Shown: in pieces, positions 54,190 to 62,958 of the stretch
Position numbering within the stretch: the first letter of the stretch is position 1
Layout of the letters: the number at the start of each line of letters is the position of its first letter
Assembly: GCF_006352475.1 (NCBI RefSeq)
Contig: NZ_VCMZ01000001.1
Span: 2,170,001-2,234,000, forward strand
Direction of reading: 5' to 3'
DNA length: 64,000 nucleotides
DNA from: Acinetobacter pullicarnis
GTDB taxonomy: Bacteria > Pseudomonadota > Gammaproteobacteria > Pseudomonadales > Moraxellaceae
Notes under the pieces: model-generated
What the model saw: the letters and a program-made list of their open reading frames with translations, nothing else
The model's database searches: none
What the model was told of the DNA's origin: nothing
Position numbers and translations under genes: made by a program

Positions 54190-54267
54190 CGTATAATGTC
54201 GCGCTTTATCTAATCTTGATGTTGTGATGATCAATAATCATTGGGACATTTTAATCAAGGAGCAAAA

Positions 54268-54864
54268 ATGTCAGTTGAAATGCTAAATTACCAATTATTT
54301 AATTATCTCAATGCACCAGCAACCGCAAGTCATACAGATATTTATTTTGGTATTTTTATGGCCAATGACACCTTGTATATTTTATTGCTCTTTTTGGCCA
54401 TGACCTGGTTCCTTGGCAGCTATCAATCCAAGGCCTTGGCACTCAAAGCGGTACTCACCACAATCACCGCACTGTTAATTGGTTATGTTATTTCGCTGGG
54501 GTATTATCATCCAAGACCCTTTATGCTCGACATGGGCAACACCTTGATTAAACATGCACCTACTGCATCTTTCCCAAGTAATCATATGCTGATCTTTAGC
54601 AGCGTGGCATTTTCCTATATCTTTGCAAAACAGCTTAAATTTGGACTAAGTTTATTTGGTTTTGCGCTGTTAGTTGCATGGTCTAGAATTTATGTGGGCG
54701 TACACTTTCCGATGGATATGTTAGGGGCTATATGTGTCGCTTTGATGACAAATGTCTTGCTGCAATGGATCTGGAATCGTTACCAAGATCCGATTATGAA
54801 CTTCTGCCTCAAAATTTATCATCTCTGTTTTAATGCAATTTTAAAAAGAGGCTGGATTAGATAA
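54268..54864 (+). CDS. PAP2-family undecaprenyl-diphosphatase-like enzyme
   Basis: 198 residues from ATG 54268 (AAGGAG 6 nt upstream). Five to six membrane helices with the three PAP2 phosphatase motifs: KxxxxxxRP-like YYHPRPF, PTASFPSNHM (PSNH) and SRIYVGVHFPMDML (SR...H..xD). The closest group is BcrC-type C55-PP phosphatase, which recycles the peptidoglycan carrier lipid. An alternative is another lipid phosphatase serving the downstream lipid operon. Confidence 0.9.
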   Translation: MSVEMLNYQLFNYLNAPATASHTDIYFGIFMANDTLYILLLFLAMTWFLGSYQSKALALKAVLTTITALLIGYVISLGYYHPRPFMLDMGNTLIKHAPTASFPSNHMLIFSSVAFSYIFAKQLKFGLSLFGFALLVAWSRIYVGVHFPMDMLGAICVALMTNVLLQWIWNRYQDPIMNFCLKIYHLCFNAILKRGWIR

Positions 54865-55075: not shown

Positions 55076-55702
55076 ATGCCATCTATCTATCAACTCAAAC
55101 CTATTTTCCAAAATGTGCTACGCCCCCTCGTTAAAAAACTATATCAACTGGGCGTAACTGCAAATCAAGTCACCTTATCTGCAATGATTATTTCAGTGCT
55201 GCTTGGTCTGTTCCTCTACTTACAAGCAGCAACCTCACCACTGATTTGGCTGTTATTTCCGGTATGGATGTTACTGCGAATGGCCTTTAATGCTGTCGAT
55301 GGCATGCTGGCACGTGAATTTAATCAGCAATCTAAGCTCGGGGCTTTTTATAATGAACTCAGTGATGTCATCTCAGACAGTGCACTGTATTTAAGTTTTT
55401 TATGTATTGCTTGGCTCTCTGCCGAACTGCTGTTGCTCATGTGCTTTCTTGCAATTTTATCTGAATATGCTGGGGTGATGGCGCCCTTGGTGGGTGCTGA
55501 ACGTCGTTATGATGGGCCAATGGGCAAAAGTGATCGCGCGTTTTGCTTAAGCCTGTTGGCAATTCTCATCTATCTCTCCTCCCTCCTTCCTGACCTGCAT
55601 CAACGGATGGCTTATCTCGCTAACGGTTTAATCATTCTGATTATTTTACTATTACTCCTGACGACTTTTAATCGAATCAAAAAAAGCATTAATTTACCTT
55701 AA
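55076..55702 (+). CDS. CDP-alcohol phosphatidyltransferase (YnbA-like)
   Basis: Transfers a phosphatidyl group from CDP-diacylglycerol to an alcohol, in the inner membrane. 208 residues, several membrane helices. The family motif reads NAVDGMLAREFNQQSKLG then NELSD, i.e. N-x2-DG-x2-AR-x8-G-x3-N-x3-D: the first and third aspartates of the canonical site are Asn. As I recall, E. coli YnbA shares these Asn. The start at 55076 (PSIYQLKPIFQ) fits the family; a TTG at 55037 is within the inverted repeat. First gene of the operon; alcohol acceptor unknown. Confidence 0.9.
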   Translation: MPSIYQLKPIFQNVLRPLVKKLYQLGVTANQVTLSAMIISVLLGLFLYLQAATSPLIWLLFPVWMLLRMAFNAVDGMLAREFNQQSKLGAFYNELSDVISDSALYLSFLCIAWLSAELLLLMCFLAILSEYAGVMAPLVGAERRYDGPMGKSDRAFCLSLLAILIYLSSLLPDLHQRMAYLANGLIILIILLLLLTTFNRIKKSINLP

Positions 55703-55727
55703 TTATCAATATTACTTTGGAATCAAA

Positions 55728-57479
55728 ATGATGCATAACAACTCAGAACAAACTTTTATTACACATGACGGCACATCACTCTTTTATCAACATTGGGCCA
55801 GCACCCAACCTGATTCAGAAAAGAAAGCTATTCTGCTATTTCATCGCGGGCATGAACACGCTGGCCGTATGGCACATTTAATTGAGGAACTCAAACTTCC
55901 CGCCTATGATTTTTTCGCTTGGGATGCTCGTGGTCATGGAAAGTCACCAGGTGAACGTGGGGACGCACCCAGTTTTTCAGTCTGTGTAAAAGATATTCAG
56001 TATTTTGTGCAGCACATTGCGACGGAATACAACATTCAAATTCATAATATTGCGGTGATTGGTCAGAGTGTAGGTGCTGTCTTGGCCGCCACTTGGGTAC
56101 ATGACTATGCGCCCAAAATTCGTGCACTGTGTTTGGCATCACCAGCCTTCGATATCAAACTTTATGTACCTTTGGCCCGACCTGGCCTCAGCTTAATGAA
56201 TAAGCTGCGTGGTAATTTCTTTATTAATAGCTATGTTAAATCCAAAATGCTCACCCACGATCTAGAACGTGCAGCGAGCTATGATACTGATCCACTGATT
56301 GCACGTGCCATTTCCGTTCGTATGTTGCTTGGCCTCTATCAAGCTGCGGATCGTATTGTCGATGATGCGCAACATATTTTCGTACCCACCCAAATCCTTT
56401 GCTCTGGTTCAGATTTTGTGGTCACGCAAGCACCACAACATAAGTTCTATCAAAAATTGCCACATCCACACAAAGAGTTCCACATATTAGAAGGCTTTTA
56501 TCACGATACTTTAGGTGAAAAAGGCCGTCATGTGGCAATCGAAAAAATACGCAGATTTATTTTGCAATGTTTTGCCCAAGACTACCAAGCCCCAGATGTA
56601 TTACATGCCGACAAAATGGGACCAAGCTGTGCTATCGCAGAGCAGCTTAGCGCTCCTCTACCAGAAAAATCGTTAAAACAAGTTTTTTGGCAACTGACCA
56701 AAAGAAATCTTAAAATTGGCAGTTATTTTTCTAAAGGCCTAAAAATTGGCGAAGATACTGGTTATGACTCCGGTAGCACCTTAGATTTTGTTTATCGCAA
56801 TCAAGCAGAAAGCCGTAATCCACTGGGTAAAATCATTGATCGCCAATATTTAAATGCGATCGGCTGGAAAGGGATTCGTGTTCGCAAACAGCATATCGAA
56901 CAACTACTACAAAAATACGCGCAGACTTTGACGCAAGCCAATCAACCATTACGCATCCTCGATATTGCCTCTGGGCATGGTCGCTATATTTTAGATGCCG
57001 TCAAAAGTTTGACTCAGCAGCCAGAATCGATTTTATTGCGTGACTATAGTGAGTTGAATGTAAAGGCTGGCCAGAAACTCATCTCTGACCGTGGTTTAGC
57101 AACCATCGCACAGTTTGTTCAAGCTGATGCATTTGATCAAGTTTCACTGGCGACCATTGCACCCAAAGTCAATTTGGCTGTGGTGTCTGGCCTATATGAG
57201 CTATTTAGTGATAATACCCTTTTAACACAGTCACTCAGCGGCTTAAGCGCTGCTGTCACTCAAGGTGGCTATTTAATTTACACCGGTCAAATCTGGCATC
57301 CACAACAAGAATTCATTGCACGCGCCTTAACTTCGCATCGCCAAGGAGATGCTTGGGTGATGCGCTTACGCTCTCAAGCAGAAATGGATGCCTTGGTTGA
57401 GCAAGCTGGCTTTAAAAAAGTTGACCAATGCATTGATGAATTTGGCATATTTACCGTCTCTGTTGCGCAGAAACTGTAA
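55728..57479 (+). CDS. Alpha/beta hydrolase-methyltransferase fusion (YnbC-like)
   Basis: 583 residues with two enzymes. Residues 1-285: serine hydrolase of the monoacylglycerol-lipase type (Ser114 in IGQSVGAVLA, Asp229 in CSGSDFVV, His259 in GFYHDTLGE). Residues 330-583: class I SAM-dependent methyltransferase with motif I LDIASGHGRYILDAV at 411-425. The same fusion is known in E. coli YnbC. It could deacylate a lipid intermediate and methylate a head group; neither substrate is known. 25 bp after the first gene. Confidence 0.9.
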   Translation: MMHNNSEQTFITHDGTSLFYQHWASTQPDSEKKAILLFHRGHEHAGRMAHLIEELKLPAYDFFAWDARGHGKSPGERGDAPSFSVCVKDIQYFVQHIATEYNIQIHNIAVIGQSVGAVLAATWVHDYAPKIRALCLASPAFDIKLYVPLARPGLSLMNKLRGNFFINSYVKSKMLTHDLERAASYDTDPLIARAISVRMLLGLYQAADRIVDDAQHIFVPTQILCSGSDFVVTQAPQHKFYQKLPHPHKEFHILEGFYHDTLGEKGRHVAIEKIRRFILQCFAQDYQAPDVLHADKMGPSCAIAEQLSAPLPEKSLKQVFWQLTKRNLKIGSYFSKGLKIGEDTGYDSGSTLDFVYRNQAESRNPLGKIIDRQYLNAIGWKGIRVRKQHIEQLLQKYAQTLTQANQPLRILDIASGHGRYILDAVKSLTQQPESILLRDYSELNVKAGQKLISDRGLATIAQFVQADAFDQVSLATIAPKVNLAVVSGLYELFSDNTLLTQSLSGLSAAVTQGGYLIYTGQIWHPQQEFIARALTSHRQGDAWVMRLRSQAEMDALVEQAGFKKVDQCIDEFGIFTVSVAQKL

Positions 57480-57542
57480 TTCAGATGATCTAAATCGCGC
57501 ACATTTTATCTTTACTGATCATTACTGGAATGCAAAATCGCA

Positions 57543-58907
57543 ATGATGCATACGCTTGATAAACAATCAGGAACATGGAAATGGGGAATATTCGGGCTTG
57601 CCCTATTGGCTCCATTTTTCTTTTTAAGTTATGGCTTTGCCAATCATTATGCCGCCAACCTCAAGGCTGTGCCAAGCATCATGTTTGCATGGGAAGCTGA
57701 TATTCCATTATGGCCTTGGAGCATTGTTCCTTATTGGTCAATTGATTTGTTTTATGGCCTATCGCTGCTGCTGTGTTGGAATAAATTTGAGCTCAAACAG
57801 CAAATGCTTAGGCTATTCTCAGCGCAAATCATTGCTGTGAGTTGCTTTTTACTCTTCCCACTCAAATTTAGTTTAGTACGCCCGGAACTCTCTGGCTTTT
57901 TTGGTTTATGGTTTGATGTATTAATGGGCTTTGACCAGCCTTTTAATCAAGCCCCTTCATTACATATCGTCTTATTGGTGATTCTTTGGGATTTTTACCG
58001 CAGGCATGTGAATGGCAGTTGGAAATTATGGGTTGATTGTTGGTCTTTTCTGATCGGGCTTTCTGTACTCACCACTTGGCAACATCATTTTATTGATATC
58101 CCAACGGGCATATTGGTTGGTGCCTTCTGTTTATGGCTCTTTCCGCTTCAGGTCAAAGCACCCTATTCCGCTCAAAAGCAACCGCAACATACGAAACGAC
58201 ATGCGCGACTAGCACTATTATATAGCCTTGCCGCCATCCTCCTTTGCTTTGTGGCTTATCTATTGAAAGGTTGGGCTTTGTGGTTACTGTATCCCAGCTT
58301 AAGTTTAATTCTAGTCGCATGTGCTTATGTTTTGGATCGCCCTCACTTTTTCCAAAAAGACCCACAAGGACAAATCAGTGCTGCTGCACAAATTCTATTT
58401 GCCCCCTATTTTCTCTGCGCTTGGTTAAATAGCCGAATCTGGACCAAGGCGCATCCTGAAGATTCATTCATCGTGACCTTGGGTTCAGTCGAATTGTATT
58501 TGGGACGTATTCCATCAATGCAACATGCTAAAAGCTTTGATGCTTTATTCGATTGTTGTGCTGAACTCCCACGCCCAAATCATCCGCATCATTATGCAAG
58601 CTATAGTTTAGATTTAACCACTGTACAGGCAATGCAATTACAATGTGCTGTAAATGAACTAGATCACGCCATAAATACCCTTACCCATCACACATCACCA
58701 CAAAAGATTTTAGTTTTTTGTGCCTTAGGCTATTCGAGAAGTAGTTGCACGCTGGTGGCATGGTTGCTGACGCATCACAATGCTGATTCCGTCGCTGAGG
58801 CAATCAGCATCATACAAAATGCACGACCGTGGATTGTGATTAATCCTGCGCAACACCTTGAACTTGAGCAGTTTCATCTGATGTTACAGGGGGCACAATC
58901 ATGTTAA
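57543..58907 (+). CDS. PAP2-like phosphatase fused to dual-specificity phosphatase (YnbD-like)
   Basis: 454 residues. N-terminal membrane part with PAP2-type features (PSLH at 138-141, HHFID at 181-185) and about six helices, more helices to about residue 260, then a soluble dual-specificity/tyrosine phosphatase domain with the catalytic loop FCALGYSRSS (Cys393, Arg399: C-x5-R) and an Asp upstream. Known in E. coli YnbD. It probably removes phosphate from lipid phosphates such as phosphatidylglycerol-phosphate-like intermediates. Overlaps the next gene. Confidence 0.9.
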   Translation: MMHTLDKQSGTWKWGIFGLALLAPFFFLSYGFANHYAANLKAVPSIMFAWEADIPLWPWSIVPYWSIDLFYGLSLLLCWNKFELKQQMLRLFSAQIIAVSCFLLFPLKFSLVRPELSGFFGLWFDVLMGFDQPFNQAPSLHIVLLVILWDFYRRHVNGSWKLWVDCWSFLIGLSVLTTWQHHFIDIPTGILVGAFCLWLFPLQVKAPYSAQKQPQHTKRHARLALLYSLAAILLCFVAYLLKGWALWLLYPSLSLILVACAYVLDRPHFFQKDPQGQISAAAQILFAPYFLCAWLNSRIWTKAHPEDSFIVTLGSVELYLGRIPSMQHAKSFDALFDCCAELPRPNHPHHYASYSLDLTTVQAMQLQCAVNELDHAINTLTHHTSPQKILVFCALGYSRSSCTLVAWLLTHHNADSVAEAISIIQNARPWIVINPAQHLELEQFHLMLQGAQSC

Positions 58908-59347
58908 TGCAATTACGTGTGCTATCAAAATTACTGTCTGCAACACGAGGTCTGTGCTGCTCGGCTTATCTGTGTTTTGCCTTGGCAATGCTCCCACTTA
59001 TGTTTTATATGTGGCACGACATGATTTGGTGGGCTTACTTACTGAGTATTATGGCTTTGTGTTTGACTCAACATTTTTTATGCATTCGCATACAATTTGA
59101 TGTCGACCTGCTGAACATGATGACGACAACTGCTGACAGCAAAAATGAGACTGCTTCACTCACCGAATTAACCACGCAACTCGACCATGCTTTGGTCGAC
59201 TTACAACTGATTCCACCCAAAAAAATAGGCCGTAATTGGAATCTACGTATGCAAGGCTGTATGCGTTTGTTTAAAATACAGATCACTTTACTTATACTTC
59301 AATACATTATATTTATTTTCTTGATTAAACGTCTTATTCAACAATAA
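58901..59347 (+). CDS. Small membrane protein of the lipid operon, 148 aa
   Basis: Start overlaps the preceding stop by 7 bp. Three membrane helices (residues about 22-38, 42-62, 130-145), with a cytosolic or periplasmic loop between that is acidic and Thr-rich (MTTTADSKNETASLTEL). No family recognised. Probably a scaffold or accessory protein of the operon. Confidence 0.75.
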   Translation: MLMQLRVLSKLLSATRGLCCSAYLCFALAMLPLMFYMWHDMIWWAYLLSIMALCLTQHFLCIRIQFDVDLLNMMTTTADSKNETASLTELTTQLDHALVDLQLIPPKKIGRNWNLRMQGCMRLFKIQITLLILQYIIFIFLIKRLIQQ

Positions 59348-59365
59348 TTTCACCTAGGCCTCATT

Positions 59366-60055
59366 ATGAACAGTAACTTGCCCACGCCTTCAAGTGGAAC
59401 CACCAAAAAGACTGCGATAATCTCACAGCAGATTGCTCGTTTTATTGCATTTTTAACACGTCGAAGTGCTCGATTACTGACTGGCGCAAGAAGCGTTTGG
59501 CTTGGCTGTGAACCTGATTTAAAGCAGCGCATTTACTATGCAAATCATAATAGCCATATCGATTTCATTCTTTTATGGTCGTCATTGCCTAAACCCATCC
59601 GCAGAAAAACACGTCCTGTGGCTGCATCAGATTATTGGAATAAAGATGGAATACGTCGCTTTCTGATTCAAGATACTTTTAATGGGGTGACCATAAAGCG
59701 CAATCGTGAAAATAATGCAGATCCATTACAGCCCATTAAAGATGTACTCAGTGATGGTTATTCAATTATTTTCTTTCCTGAAGGAACTCGAAACTTAGAT
59801 GATGATGTTGACCTGCTAAAATTTAAAAGTGGTCTTTATAATTTACATAAACAGTTTCCTGAAATTGAAATTATACCGGTCTGGATTTCAAACTTAAGAA
59901 GAGTGATGCCGAAGGGGGCTCTTATTCCACTTCCATTGTTGTCAACGGTTTGTTTTGGTGCACCACTTGAATCGCATTTAGACATGGATAAAGCAGAATT
60001 TTTAGATTATGCCCAAGATGCATTAATCAAATTAAAAAAGGCTGAAAACCAATGA
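59366..60055 (+). CDS. PlsC-like 1-acylglycerol-phosphate acyltransferase
   Basis: 229 residues. Acyltransferase motif I NHNSHID (H61-x4-D66) and motif III FPEGTR (137-142). The PlsC family adds the second fatty acid to lysophosphatidic acid or a similar acceptor. Operon with a CdsA-like gene suggests it makes the precursor for CDP-lipid formation. Not the housekeeping plsC by position; acceptor unknown. Confidence 0.92.
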   Translation: MNSNLPTPSSGTTKKTAIISQQIARFIAFLTRRSARLLTGARSVWLGCEPDLKQRIYYANHNSHIDFILLWSSLPKPIRRKTRPVAASDYWNKDGIRRFLIQDTFNGVTIKRNRENNADPLQPIKDVLSDGYSIIFFPEGTRNLDDDVDLLKFKSGLYNLHKQFPEIEIIPVWISNLRRVMPKGALIPLPLLSTVCFGAPLESHLDMDKAEFLDYAQDALIKLKKAENQ

Positions 60056-60996
60056 GCTTAGATAACCTACAGCAAACCTATCTTTTATTTGGAATTTTTG
60101 CAGGGATCTTAATTTTTGCTTCGACTGTTGGGTTTATTTTAAAACAACGAACAGCCTCAAAAGCATCACCAGTGATAGACAATTTAAATGCACGTATTAA
60201 TGCTTGGTGGGTAATGCTGATCGTTATCGGATCAGCAATTCTATTGGGTCAAACTGCATTTATTATACTTTTTGGTATTATTTCTTTATTTGCTTTACGT
60301 GAGTTTATCAGTTTATTACCTACACGACGTGGCGACTATTTTCCATTACTCATCGCATTTTACTTTGTCATTCCTTATCAATATTATTTAGTTTATATCG
60401 ATTGGTATGGGCTATATTCGATATTTATTCCACTTTATGTGTTCTTACTGATTCCAATTGCCAGTTTAAAACAAGAAGATACCACGCATTTTCTAGAGCG
60501 TAGCTCTAAAATACAATGGGGATTGATGGTTAGTGTATTCTGTATTTCCTATGTACCCGCATTATTAAACCTCAAATTAATCGGTTTTGATGGTGAAAAA
60601 ATATGGTTAGCCATCTGGCTCATTATGGTGGTACAAGCCTCGGATGTTTTACAGTACGTCTGTGGCAAACTATTTGGCAAACATAAAGTCGCCCCTGTTC
60701 TTTCTCCTTCAAAAACAGTTGAAGGTTTACTGGGTGGTATTATTTTGGCGACAGCACTCGGTGTGGCACTGTCCTGGCTCACTCCATTTAATTACTGGCA
60801 AGCAACAGTGATTGGTTTTGTTGTTTGTATTTTTGGCTTTTTGGGTGGCTTGGTTATGTCAGCGATTAAACGTGATCGCGGTGTAAAAGACTGGGGACAA
60901 CTCATTCAAGGGCATGGTGGCATGCTAGATCGTATCGATTCAATTTGTTTTTCCGCCCCAATCTTTTTTCATATTCTTCGTTATTGGTGGTCTTAA
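60052..60996 (+). CDS. Phosphatidate cytidylyltransferase (CdsA/YnbB-like)
   Basis: 314 residues, about eight membrane helices. C-terminal CDP-DAG synthase signature VLSPSKTVEGLLGG with KRDRGVKDWGQLIQGHGGMLDRIDS, as in CdsA. Makes CDP-diacylglycerol from phosphatidate and CTP. Its ATG overlaps the plsC stop (ATGA), the last gene of the operon. A paralogue of the essential cdsA, as YnbB is in E. coli. Confidence 0.94.
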   Translation: MSLDNLQQTYLLFGIFAGILIFASTVGFILKQRTASKASPVIDNLNARINAWWVMLIVIGSAILLGQTAFIILFGIISLFALREFISLLPTRRGDYFPLLIAFYFVIPYQYYLVYIDWYGLYSIFIPLYVFLLIPIASLKQEDTTHFLERSSKIQWGLMVSVFCISYVPALLNLKLIGFDGEKIWLAIWLIMVVQASDVLQYVCGKLFGKHKVAPVLSPSKTVEGLLGGIILATALGVALSWLTPFNYWQATVIGFVVCIFGFLGGLVMSAIKRDRGVKDWGQLIQGHGGMLDRIDSICFSAPIFFHILRYWWS

Positions 60997-61035: not shown

Positions 61036-61066
61036 AAAGCATGCATAAAACATTGCATGCTTTTTT
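61036..61066 (+). terminator. Terminator of the lipid operon
   Basis: AAGCATGCA / TGCATGCTT stem, 8-nt loop, then a T-run, 41 bp after the last stop. Confidence 0.9.
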
Positions 61067-61239: not shown

Positions 61240-62034
61240 ATGATTTTAGCAATGCACACAGTACAAGACCGTCATAGGCAGAAGCATTGGCAAGGCAAAA
61301 TTGGGATTGGATATGGTATTGGTTATTTTGAAGGCCTGTCTGGTGATAATCACCACCACCAACATCACGCACATCAAATCAGTTTTTCAAAATCATCTGA
61401 ACATTTAATCTCGATAAAATCAGATCAAACGTGTTTAACCGGTGAAGCTTTTTTTATTCGAGCCAATACTGCACACCAGTTAGACCCAGATTATTACTGC
61501 TCGATTTATATAGACAGCACCCATTATTTAGCCGAGCAATTTATTGCACAGCATCAACTCAATGATGCCATTCTTCCCCTAACGCAAGATTTAATTCAAA
61601 TATTACGTCGCTGTTTCAATCATCCCAATAGCATTCAATCTAGTTTTTTGAAGTTGCTTCAATCACTAAAAAAACCAATAAATGTGAATACTTCAGACAA
61701 AAAAATAAAAACTCTAGCGCTTCTGCAATCCGAATATCCACATATTCCTGAACGACATTTACTTGCGCAATACATTGGGGTCTCGGATAGCCGCTTTTCA
61801 CATTGGTTTACAGCGTCATTTGGCATATCTTATCGAAGCTATCGAAAATGGCTAAGATTAATCAGCACTCTCAAACTTATTCAACTGCATGTCGATCTAA
61901 CCAGCATCGCACATGAACGCCAATTTTCAGATCAGGCTCATTTTAGCCGTACCTGCAAGCAAATGTTTGGCATTAATCCTTCCGCCATTCAACCGCTTGA
62001 CCAAATTGAGATGATTCCGTCATTGTTCGATTAA
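61240..62034 (+). CDS. AraC-family transcriptional regulator
   Basis: 264 residues. N-terminal cupin-like sensing domain rich in His (DNHHHQHHAHQISFS) and a C-terminal helix-turn-helix pair (RHLLAQYIGVSDSRFSHWFTASFGISYRSYRKW and SIAHERQFSDQAHFSRTCKQMFG). Starts at 61240 or the Met at 61252. The desaturase-like gene 85 bp downstream is the most likely target. The His-rich stretch may bind metal. Confidence 0.88.
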   Translation: MILAMHTVQDRHRQKHWQGKIGIGYGIGYFEGLSGDNHHHQHHAHQISFSKSSEHLISIKSDQTCLTGEAFFIRANTAHQLDPDYYCSIYIDSTHYLAEQFIAQHQLNDAILPLTQDLIQILRRCFNHPNSIQSSFLKLLQSLKKPINVNTSDKKIKTLALLQSEYPHIPERHLLAQYIGVSDSRFSHWFTASFGISYRSYRKWLRLISTLKLIQLHVDLTSIAHERQFSDQAHFSRTCKQMFGINPSAIQPLDQIEMIPSLFD

Positions 62035-62118
62035 TAATAAAATAGCCGTTTCATTCAATTCTAATTTCAATTGATCCATCAATATTGCTCCATTCACCGA
62101 CAAAGCAAAGGAGCACTG

Positions 62119-62958
62119 ATGAAAATATTATTGAAATACCTAATTCGCTATGGCAGCTATCCCCTCATTATCAGTAGTGTCATTCTGATTGTTTATAAAA
62201 TTGCGGATGGAACTTTAGCGTATTGGCCAACGGCTCTCGCTATTATTGTTATGGCTAGCCTGATTATTGCATTCTTGGAGCGCATTGATCCATATCAAGA
62301 AGATTGGTTAGATGACCATCAGGATACTTTCACTGATATCATACATGCGCTTTTGAACTTAAGCTTAATTGTACTCACCTCTGAAGTAATCAGCTTACTC
62401 TATCAATTTAATTTCACAACTCAACTTTGGCCAACAAAGCTTCCACTATTATTACAACTCTTACTGGTCGGCTTAATCATCGATTTTGGCTTATGGGTCA
62501 TGCATTATATGAGTCATAAATACCGACGTTTATGGAAACTACATGCCATCCATCATCAATCACAACGGCTCTATTGGTTGAATGCTGAAAAGCGGCATCC
62601 TTTAAGTGCTTTATTATTGGCAGCGCCAAGTCTTATTATTCTCACTATAATCGGTGCTCCTAGCTTACTTATCGGTTGCTGGATGTCAATGATGGCTGTT
62701 CATTTGGCTTTTCAACATGCCAACTTAGATTATCGACTTGGTCCATTTAAAAATATATTTGCTGTTGCGGAAGTTCATCGTTGGCATCATAAACATGGTT
62801 ATGGTCAAAAAAACTTTGGTGAAGTCTTTGTTGTCTGGGATCATCTCTTTAAAACATTTCATTATCAAGATCAAAAAGTACAAGACAACCAAGTCGGTAT
62901 CAAACTTAAAATGCCAAATGATTATCTAGGGCAACTTAAATGGCCATTTAAAAAATAA
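62119..62958 (+). CDS. Sterol desaturase/fatty acid hydroxylase family protein
   Basis: 279 residues from ATG 62119 (AAAGGAG 5 nt before). Non-haem di-iron membrane hydroxylase: His clusters HYMSHKYRRLWKLHAIHH, HANLDYRL and HRWHHKHG, with four membrane helices. This superfamily inserts hydroxyl or double bonds in fatty acids, sterols or carotenoids. Substrate unknown; the neighbouring lipid operon makes a lipid more likely than a sterol. Confidence 0.92.
   Translation: MKILLKYLIRYGSYPLIISSVILIVYKIADGTLAYWPTALAIIVMASLIIAFLERIDPYQEDWLDDHQDTFTDIIHALLNLSLIVLTSEVISLLYQFNFTTQLWPTKLPLLLQLLLVGLIIDFGLWVMHYMSHKYRRLWKLHAIHHQSQRLYWLNAEKRHPLSALLLAAPSLIILTIIGAPSLLIGCWMSMMAVHLAFQHANLDYRLGPFKNIFAVAEVHRWHHKHGYGQKNFGEVFVVWDHLFKTFHYQDQKVQDNQVGIKLKMPNDYLGQLKWPFKK

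What the first reader, a model, noticed from the sequence alone, without database searches (positions are those of the whole stretch)
55076..60996. Six-gene ynbABCD-like operon with an added acyltransferase: a candidate pathway for an unknown phospholipid
Seen: CDP-alcohol phosphatidyltransferase, hydrolase-methyltransferase fusion, PAP2/dual-specificity phosphatase fusion, small membrane protein, PlsC-like and CdsA-like enzymes, with gaps of 18-63 bp or overlaps, one strand, one terminator. Known: the same domain fusions occur in E. coli YnbC and YnbD. Inference: the set covers acylation, CDP activation, head-group transfer, dephosphorylation and methylation, so it could make a distinct, perhaps methylated, phospholipid separate from the housekeeping set. 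Two gene-specific parts (the small membrane protein and PlsC-like gene) are not in the E. coli cluster as I recall it.
Basis: partly seen in the sequence, partly recalled or inferred. Interest (0 to 1): 0.8.

Follow-up and report, generated by a model that had tools for sequence, protein, structure and literature searches.

The report
Acinetobacter version of the arc1/ynb operon
This six-gene operon is the Acinetobacter form of a gene cluster already named in Pseudomonas for helping cells survive toxins from neighbouring bacteria; the lipid it is thought to make is still unknown, and one of its enzymes has an oddly altered metal-binding site.

Summary
In detail: six co-directional genes at 55076-60996, spacers of 25, 63, -7, 18 and -4 bp, and a hairpin terminator after the last. 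It is not new as a gene set. The same genes in the same order occur in many Acinetobacter and Pseudomonas. In P. aeruginosa the cluster is PA2541-PA2536, published as arc1A-F: a Gac/Rsm-controlled defence against T6SS attack, with arc1A later tied to lipase-effector resistance. E. coli ynbABCD is a four-gene form. No listing or passage I saw names a lipid product, so "unknown phospholipid" stays open and "methylated" is untested.

Three results are not in the passages I saw. (1) The phosphatidyltransferase has Asn at two of the four metal-site Asp positions (D1, D3) in 93 of 93 aligned sequences (89 distinct, down to 38% identity) and in 12 of 12 further loci. (2) The operon's CdsA is full-length in exactly the 14 of 37 genus genomes that hold the hydrolase-methyltransferase; 3 lineages keep PlsC-CdsA apart from the rest. 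(3) The Rsm-type motif ahead of gene A (41 of 60 non-Acinetobacter loci) is absent from 18 of 18 scorable Acinetobacter loci. Verdict: new member of a known kind, with an unexplained enzyme.

The parts
55076..55702 (+). Gene A (YnbA / Arc1A type): CDP-alcohol phosphatidyltransferase-family membrane protein, 208 aa
   Evidence: PF01066 40.7 bits; best PDB sequence hit M. tuberculosis PIP synthase 6h53, E 1.5e-4
55289..55291 (+). Codon for Asn72, at the D1 position of the CDP-alcohol phosphotransferase motif
   Evidence: N in 93 of 93 aligned sequences; aligns with a motif Asp of 6h53
55352..55354 (+). Codon for Asn93, at the D3 (metal-bridging) position
   Evidence: N in 93 of 93 aligned sequences; aligns with a motif Asp of 6h53
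55728..57479 (+). Gene B (YnbC / Arc1B type): monoglyceride-lipase-like alpha/beta hydrolase fused to a SAM methyltransferase, 583 aa
   Evidence: PF12146 235.5 bits, PF12147 498.7 bits; 52% identical to E. coli YnbC; best PDB hits monoglyceride lipases
57543..58907 (+). Gene C (YnbD / Arc1C type): PAP2-like membrane domain fused to a dual-specificity phosphatase, 454 aa
   Evidence: DSPc 52 bits, PAP2 weak; PSLH, HxxxD and CxxGxxRS motifs invariant in A3 (26 sequences)
58901..59347 (+). Gene D (Arc1D type): small protein of unknown function, membrane-type by composition, 148 aa
   Evidence: No Pfam, NCBIfam or PADLOC family; relatives in 102 of 106 loci by profile
59366..60055 (+). Gene E (Arc1E type): PlsC-like acyltransferase, 229 aa
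   Evidence: PF01553 64.4 bits
60052..60996 (+). Gene F (YnbB / Arc1F type): CdsA-like cytidylyltransferase, 314 aa
   Evidence: PF01148 241.1 bits; one more CTP_transf_1 gene elsewhere in the genome
61036..61063 (+). Terminator-like hairpin
   Evidence: 10-pair stem followed by a T run

Best explanation
The operon is the Acinetobacter homologue of the P. aeruginosa arc1A-F cluster and of E. coli ynbABCD: a dedicated side pathway of phospholipid metabolism that protects the envelope from phospholipase damage. Proposed flow (inferred): E acylates a lysophosphatidate-type acceptor; F activates the phosphatidate with CTP; A transfers or remodels the activated lipid; C removes a phosphate and/or moves a head group; B trims an acyl ester and methylates; D is a membrane partner. 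Shown here: gene set, order, conservation, catalytic residues kept in B, C, E and F, and co-inheritance of F with B in the genus. Shown by others in P. aeruginosa: the defence phenotype of arc1. Not shown in anything I saw: substrates, product, or any function in Acinetobacter.
For: 77 of 80 named loci hold A, B, C, E and F in the window's order on one strand; of the other three, two end at a contig end (L051, L091) and one, A. pollinis L054, has F elsewhere with an E-like frame before it. D found by profile in 102 of 106 loci. P. aeruginosa PA2541-36 is named arc1A-F; five of six genes are predicted to act in phospholipid metabolism, and deletion of its most strongly hit gene lowers fitness against B. 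thailandensis with T6SS but not without it (PMC8926400). arc1A deletion raises sensitivity to lipase-armed V. cholerae and A. baylyi (PMC12663445). PA2537 is annotated acyltransferase, PA2536 phosphatidate cytidylyltransferase, PA2540 putative phospholipase, which fits E, F and B. Operon-type CdsA is full-length in the same 14 of 37 genus genomes as gene B and in 0 of the other 23. Where the operon is split, F is kept elsewhere in 3 of 3 and E beside it (scored in two; read by eye in the third).
Against: Gene A lacks two of four canonical metal-site Asp, so plain phosphatidyl transfer is doubtful. The Rsm-type motif is absent in Acinetobacter, so the trigger may differ. I did not compare with P. 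aeruginosa's own sequence; that match rests on order, on annotations in papers and on other Pseudomonas species. The arc1A effect in the 2025 paper is called auxiliary to arc3A, and arc1A did not matter for two other A. baylyi effectors tested with the other genes deleted together. E. coli lacks D and E; of 12 distant loci, L136, L137 and L140 show no E or F within about 14 kb, and L141 no C or D. 23 of 37 genus genomes lack gene B's family.
Confidence: 0.55

Rival explanations
1. Repair rather than a new lipid: the operon recycles phospholipase products. E re-acylates lysophosphatidate, F and A return it to ordinary anionic phospholipid (phosphatidylglycerol type), C is a phosphatidylglycerophosphate-type phosphatase, B clears monoacylglycerol and lysolipids.
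For: Resistance phenotype against lipase effectors in P. aeruginosa; Ting et al. write that four products resemble enzymes of phosphatidylglycerol synthesis; B's hydrolase half is monoglyceride-lipase-like; the best PDB hit of C's phosphatase as a single sequence is PTPMT1, which I recall as the mitochondrial phosphatidylglycerophosphate phosphatase.
Against: Gene A has Asn at D1 and D3, while two other PF01066 genes of the genome keep all four Asp; as a profile C's phosphatase scores PTPMT1 below ShufPTP, other protein-tyrosine phosphatases, DUSP10 and DUSP3; it gives the methyltransferase no job.
Confidence: 0.25
2. Back-up route for a glycolipid such as MPIase: F makes CDP-diacylglycerol that is diverted into a membrane-integration glycolipid.
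For: YnbB overproduction raises MPIase in E. coli, and YnbB does not complement a cdsA deletion (PMC6362211 passages).
Against: A ynbB knockout does not significantly change the MPIase level; it gives no role to A, B, C, D.
Confidence: 0.08
3. Gene A is a non-catalytic family member (sensor or scaffold), so the operon does not end in a phosphatidyl transfer.
For: Asn at two metal-ligand positions in all sequences examined.
Against: D75, the D4 position (presumed base in the M. tuberculosis enzyme), both Gly and the Ala of the motif, and a family-specific stretch near residues 143-155 are invariant or nearly so; the other enzymes keep their catalytic residues.
Confidence: 0.12

Closest known systems
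arc1A-F (PA2541-PA2536), P. aeruginosa antagonism resistance cluster 1
   Same: Six genes; the order and domain types fit the published locus tags and annotations and are seen directly in other Pseudomonas loci (57 of 58 hold A, B, C, E and F in order)
   Different: CANGGA motif within 40 nt ahead of gene A in 41 of 60 non-Acinetobacter loci, 0 of 18 Acinetobacter loci; function in Acinetobacter untested; P. aeruginosa's own sequence not compared here
E. coli K-12 ynbABCD (b1408-b1411)
   Same: Homologues of A (46%), F (37%), B (52%), C (37%); same Asn/Asn motif
   Different: Order A-F-B-C; no D and no E
Class I CDP-alcohol phosphotransferases, e.g. M. tuberculosis PgsA1 (PIP synthase, 6h53)
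   Same: Homologous by sequence; D2, both motif Gly, Ala and D4 kept
   Different: D1 (D68 there, a Mg-1 ligand) and D3 (D89 there, which binds both metals) are Asn
Arc3 and Aas lysophospholipid defences
   Same: Share the lipase-resistance phenotype in P. aeruginosa
   Different: Different genes; the window's genome has an Arc3A-type DUF2339 gene elsewhere

Membership tests
Arc1 gene cluster | Six genes arc1A-F in one order | tested here: met
   77 of 80 named loci, 57 of 58 Pseudomonas loci among them, hold A, B, C, E, F in the window's order; for P. aeruginosa itself only published locus tags and annotations were seen
Arc1 gene cluster | Gac/Rsm control (Rsm-type motif near the first start codon) | tested here: not met
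   CANGGA within 40 nt of gene A's start: 41 of 60 non-Acinetobacter, 0 of 18 scorable Acinetobacter loci (of 20); control genes of the former 4/60 (B), 0/60 (C), 0/51 (E), 2/59 (F). The looser A.GGA is not specific: 44/60 for A but 57/60 for B. Window: no A.GGA in 70 nt. A motif test only. I therefore call this a homologous cluster, not a shown member of the Arc1 regulon
Arc1 gene cluster | Defence against T6SS toxins | not testable with these tools
   Published for P. aeruginosa
ynbABCD | YnbC-type hydrolase-methyltransferase fusion (PF12146+PF12147) | tested here: met
   235.5 and 498.7 bits; 52% to E. coli YnbC
CDP-alcohol phosphotransferase (class I, catalytic) | Homology to PF01066 | tested here: met
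   40.7 bits, cut-off 22
CDP-alcohol phosphotransferase (class I, catalytic) | D1xxD2GxxAR(x8)GxxxD3xxxD4 with all four Asp | tested here: not met
   NxxDGxxAR(x8)GxxxNxxxD: N at both places in 93 of 93 aligned sequences (R is K in 2) and 12 of 12 distant loci. Two of the three other PF01066 genes of the own genome keep four Asp; the third did not fit the pattern and was not classified
CdsA | C-terminal signature | tested here: met
   S218 P219 K221 T222 E224 G225 and G287-G290, L292 D293 R294 D296 S297 invariant in 91 rows; that these are the signature is recalled
PlsC acyltransferase | HX4D and FPEGTR | tested here: met
   H61 and D66 in 95% or more, F137-R142 invariant in 90 rows
Dual-specificity phosphatase | CX5R(S/T) with an acid Asp | tested here: met
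   C393, R399, S400, D357 invariant in 95 rows; the usual His before Cys is not kept (Phe, Cys, Tyr or Ser)
PAP2 superfamily | RP / PSxH / HxxxD motifs and a Pfam match | tested here: inconclusive
   R113 P114, P138 S139 L140 H141, H181, D185 invariant in A3 (26 sequences), but the Pfam score (19 bits) is below its cut-off of 27.2

The most novel reading that the evidence does not exclude
YnbA/Arc1A defines a branch of the CDP-alcohol phosphotransferases in which two metal-binding aspartates, including the one that binds both Mg ions, were replaced by asparagine in the common ancestor and kept so. Together with the hydrolase-methyltransferase (gene A sits near gene B in 104 of 106 loci; the two exceptions are one contig, counted twice, that starts just ahead of gene B; all 106 were found through gene B or by asking for ynb, so A without B was not looked for) it would carry out a different reaction on CDP-activated lipid, with one metal ion or none, and make a lipid class not yet described that shields proteobacterial envelopes from phospholipase toxins.
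Probability: 0.3. Interest if true: 0.8.

Novelty: new member of a known kind. Interest (0 to 1): 0.45.

Why it matters
The arc1/ynb cluster is common (4242 of 5426 complete E. coli genomes hold a place covering at least 80% of ynbABCD), protects P. aeruginosa against attack by other bacteria, and no product of it is named in anything I saw. The Asn/Asn signature gives a concrete, testable question about one of its two most constant proteins; the stand-alone E-F pairs and the Acinetobacter copies without the Rsm-type motif are natural variants to test in.

Tried and rejected
Upstream PAP2 gene (54241-54864) and downstream AraC and fatty-acid-hydroxylase genes (61240-62958) as operon members: no homologue in the 94 loci compared except the PAP2 gene in L034, so left out. 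Promoter scan: fewer sites than in shuffles (13 versus 18.0), uninformative. PTPMT1 as identity of the phosphatase domain: best hit for the single sequence but not for the profile, so only a lead. PAP2_3 as identity of the PAP2 domain: 22.3 bits against a cut-off of 27 in E. coli YnbD, not claimed. Anti-phage families: no PADLOC hit for any of the six proteins. Solved relatives of D: nothing better than E 0.73; Pfam on 29 members gave only scattered weak hits. Co-occurrence with the Arc3A family: 34 of 37 genus genomes hold PF10101, so it says little.
Full report
What is there. Searches give six + strand genes, 55076-60996, with spacers of 25, 63, -7, 18 and -4 bp and a hairpin plus T run at 61036-61063. 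The window lies in a 4.13 Mb genome. Its genus is Acinetobacter: contigs of two genomes that genome-search runs "same genus" (G010:C1, 4024840 bases; G036:C16, 44795 bases) have the lengths of the named contigs of A. dispersus and A. soli.

It is a known gene set. In 77 of the 80, genes A, B, C, E and F are in the window's order on one strand; L051 and L091 end at a contig end, and A. pollinis L054 has E-F elsewhere. I examined 106 loci in all: these 80, 13 of unnamed same-genus genomes (several of them the same genomes as named loci), 12 of more distant genomes, and E. coli K-12. A profile of D finds it in 102 of 106, weakly in L136 (E 0.00099) and at about 1e-7 in L137-L139; it is missing from E. 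coli, from L091 (contig end) and from L140 and L141. E. coli K-12 ynbABCD is A-F-B-C without D and E. In 299 genomes of the phylum 17, the window's own included, hold gene B's methyltransferase family, so it is patchy. Of the 16 others I fetched 12: A is found in 12, C in 10, E and F in 9; A points the other way from B in L136 and L137.

The literature. Of PMC8926400 I saw the outline and abstract, one whole results section and passages: screens in P. aeruginosa named PA2541-36 arc1A-F, one of three Gac/Rsm-controlled clusters that protect against B. thailandensis T6SS; five of its six genes are predicted to act in phospholipid metabolism; none of the single toxin mutants tested removed the need for Arc1, and the authors call its role more general. 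Passages of PMC12663445 report that arc1A contributes, as an auxiliary to arc3A, to resistance against lipase effectors of V. cholerae and A. baylyi. A passage of PMC4066749 lists PA2541 among genes with a single known Rsm site around the ribosome-binding sequence. Annotations of PA2537, PA2536 and PA2540 in passages of three other papers fit genes E, F and B. Passages of PMC6362211 show that E. coli YnbB overproduction raises the glycolipid MPIase while its deletion does not significantly change it. Other passages give ynbA only as one hit in long lists. Nine paper searches were answered; nothing in the listings or passages I saw names the lipid product or remarks on the motif described next. 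The library holds open-licence papers only.

An altered active site. Class I CDP-alcohol phosphotransferases carry four aspartates. In M. tuberculosis PgsA1, D68, D71 and D89 bind Mg-1, D89 also binds Mg-2, and D93 is the presumed base (PMC6506517 passages). Gene A aligns with this enzyme but has Asn72 and Asn93 at the first and third positions. So do 93 of 93 aligned sequences (89 distinct, lowest pairwise identity 38%), E. coli YnbA among them, and the 12 distant loci (11, L141). Of the three other PF01066 genes of the same genome, two (by eye PgsA- and PssA-like) keep all four Asp; the third did not fit my pattern and was not classified. The rest of the motif is kept (Arg is Lys in 2 of 93), as is a family-specific stretch around residues 143-155. 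So this is an old, fixed change and not decay. How rare it is in the whole superfamily I did not establish.

The other catalytic residues are kept: Ser114, Asp229 and His259 of the hydrolase and the SAM-binding stretch of B; Cys-X5-Arg and PAP2-type motifs of C; HX4D (95% or more) and FPEGTR of E; the CdsA signature of F. The His that usually precedes the Cys is replaced in C.

One pathway in two modules. In 58 genomes (37 of the genus) gene B's family occurs strongly in 14, all of the genus, with one weak hit in G038. The operon-type CdsA (75% identity or more, nearly full length) occurs in exactly the same 14. Elsewhere there are only weaker, partial matches (27-52%), apart from a 69-residue end fragment at 93% at the edge of a contig in G030, a genome 65% complete. 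Ignoring kinship, the chance of such agreement within the genus is 1.6e-10; kinship makes this figure too small. But three lineages (G035, G015, A. pollinis) have F apart from A-D and still keep it, with E beside it (scored at 69% and 65% in the first two; read by eye in the third), in three different neighbourhoods whose genes, read by eye and not searched, show no lipid enzyme. G001, without gene B, has neither; E was scored in these five genomes only. I take this as the best evidence that E-F feeds A-D. Against it, L136, L137 and L140 show no E or F within about 14 kb, and their genomes were not searched for them.

Regulation. CANGGA lies within 40 nt ahead of gene A in 41 of 60 Pseudomonas, Paucimonas and Diaphorobacter loci but 0 of 18 scorable Acinetobacter loci (of 20); control genes B, C, E, F of the former show 4/60, 0/60, 0/51 and 2/59. 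The looser A.GGA does not discriminate (44/60 for A, 57/60 for B). This fits Rsm control in Pseudomonas, as published, and suggests another trigger in Acinetobacter; start codons were picked by script.

Descent. In a tree of gene B (35 rows chosen of 95, one cut-short row dropped) the window pairs with A. calcoaceticus JUb89 (90/70, not strongly supported), and Diaphorobacter caeni falls between A. pollinis and the other Acinetobacter (100/99), which points to transfer or contamination.

Mechanism. My best account is a dedicated phospholipid side pathway that hardens the envelope against phospholipases; head group, role of methylation and chemistry of A are inferred or unknown. A repair route to ordinary anionic lipid is the main rival.

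Noticed in passing
L055:14190-19748 and 13 other Pseudomonas loci: In 14 of 94 loci compared, all Pseudomonas, a bacterial alpha-2-macroglobulin gene lies in the flank after the operon; in L055 it begins 143 bases after the CdsA match. A weakly alpha-2-macroglobulin-like protein, MagD, came up in the same T6SS-resistance screen as arc1.
   Followed up: partly
L052 (Diaphorobacter caeni): A contig labelled as a betaproteobacterium carries an operon nearer to the window (72% in gene B) than the Pseudomonas copies are (59-62%); transfer or contamination not resolved.
   Followed up: partly
G000:C1:815729-817918 (L145): The window's own genome has an Arc3A-type DUF2339 protein (251 bits); 34 of 37 genus genomes hold the family.
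   Followed up: no
L013 / L027 (genome G015): The gene B frame carries one in-frame stop within the methyltransferase match: a broken gene or a sequencing error.
   Followed up: no
window 62071-62958: Fatty-acid-hydroxylase family protein whose best NCBIfam match is ornithine-lipid hydroxylase OlsE (153 bits, well below its cut-off of 475), next to an AraC-type regulator downstream of the operon.
   Followed up: no
L136, L137, L140, L141: Reduced or rearranged forms: in L136 and L137 gene A points the opposite way to B, with no E or F nearby; L140 shows only A and B; L141 lacks C and D.
   Followed up: no
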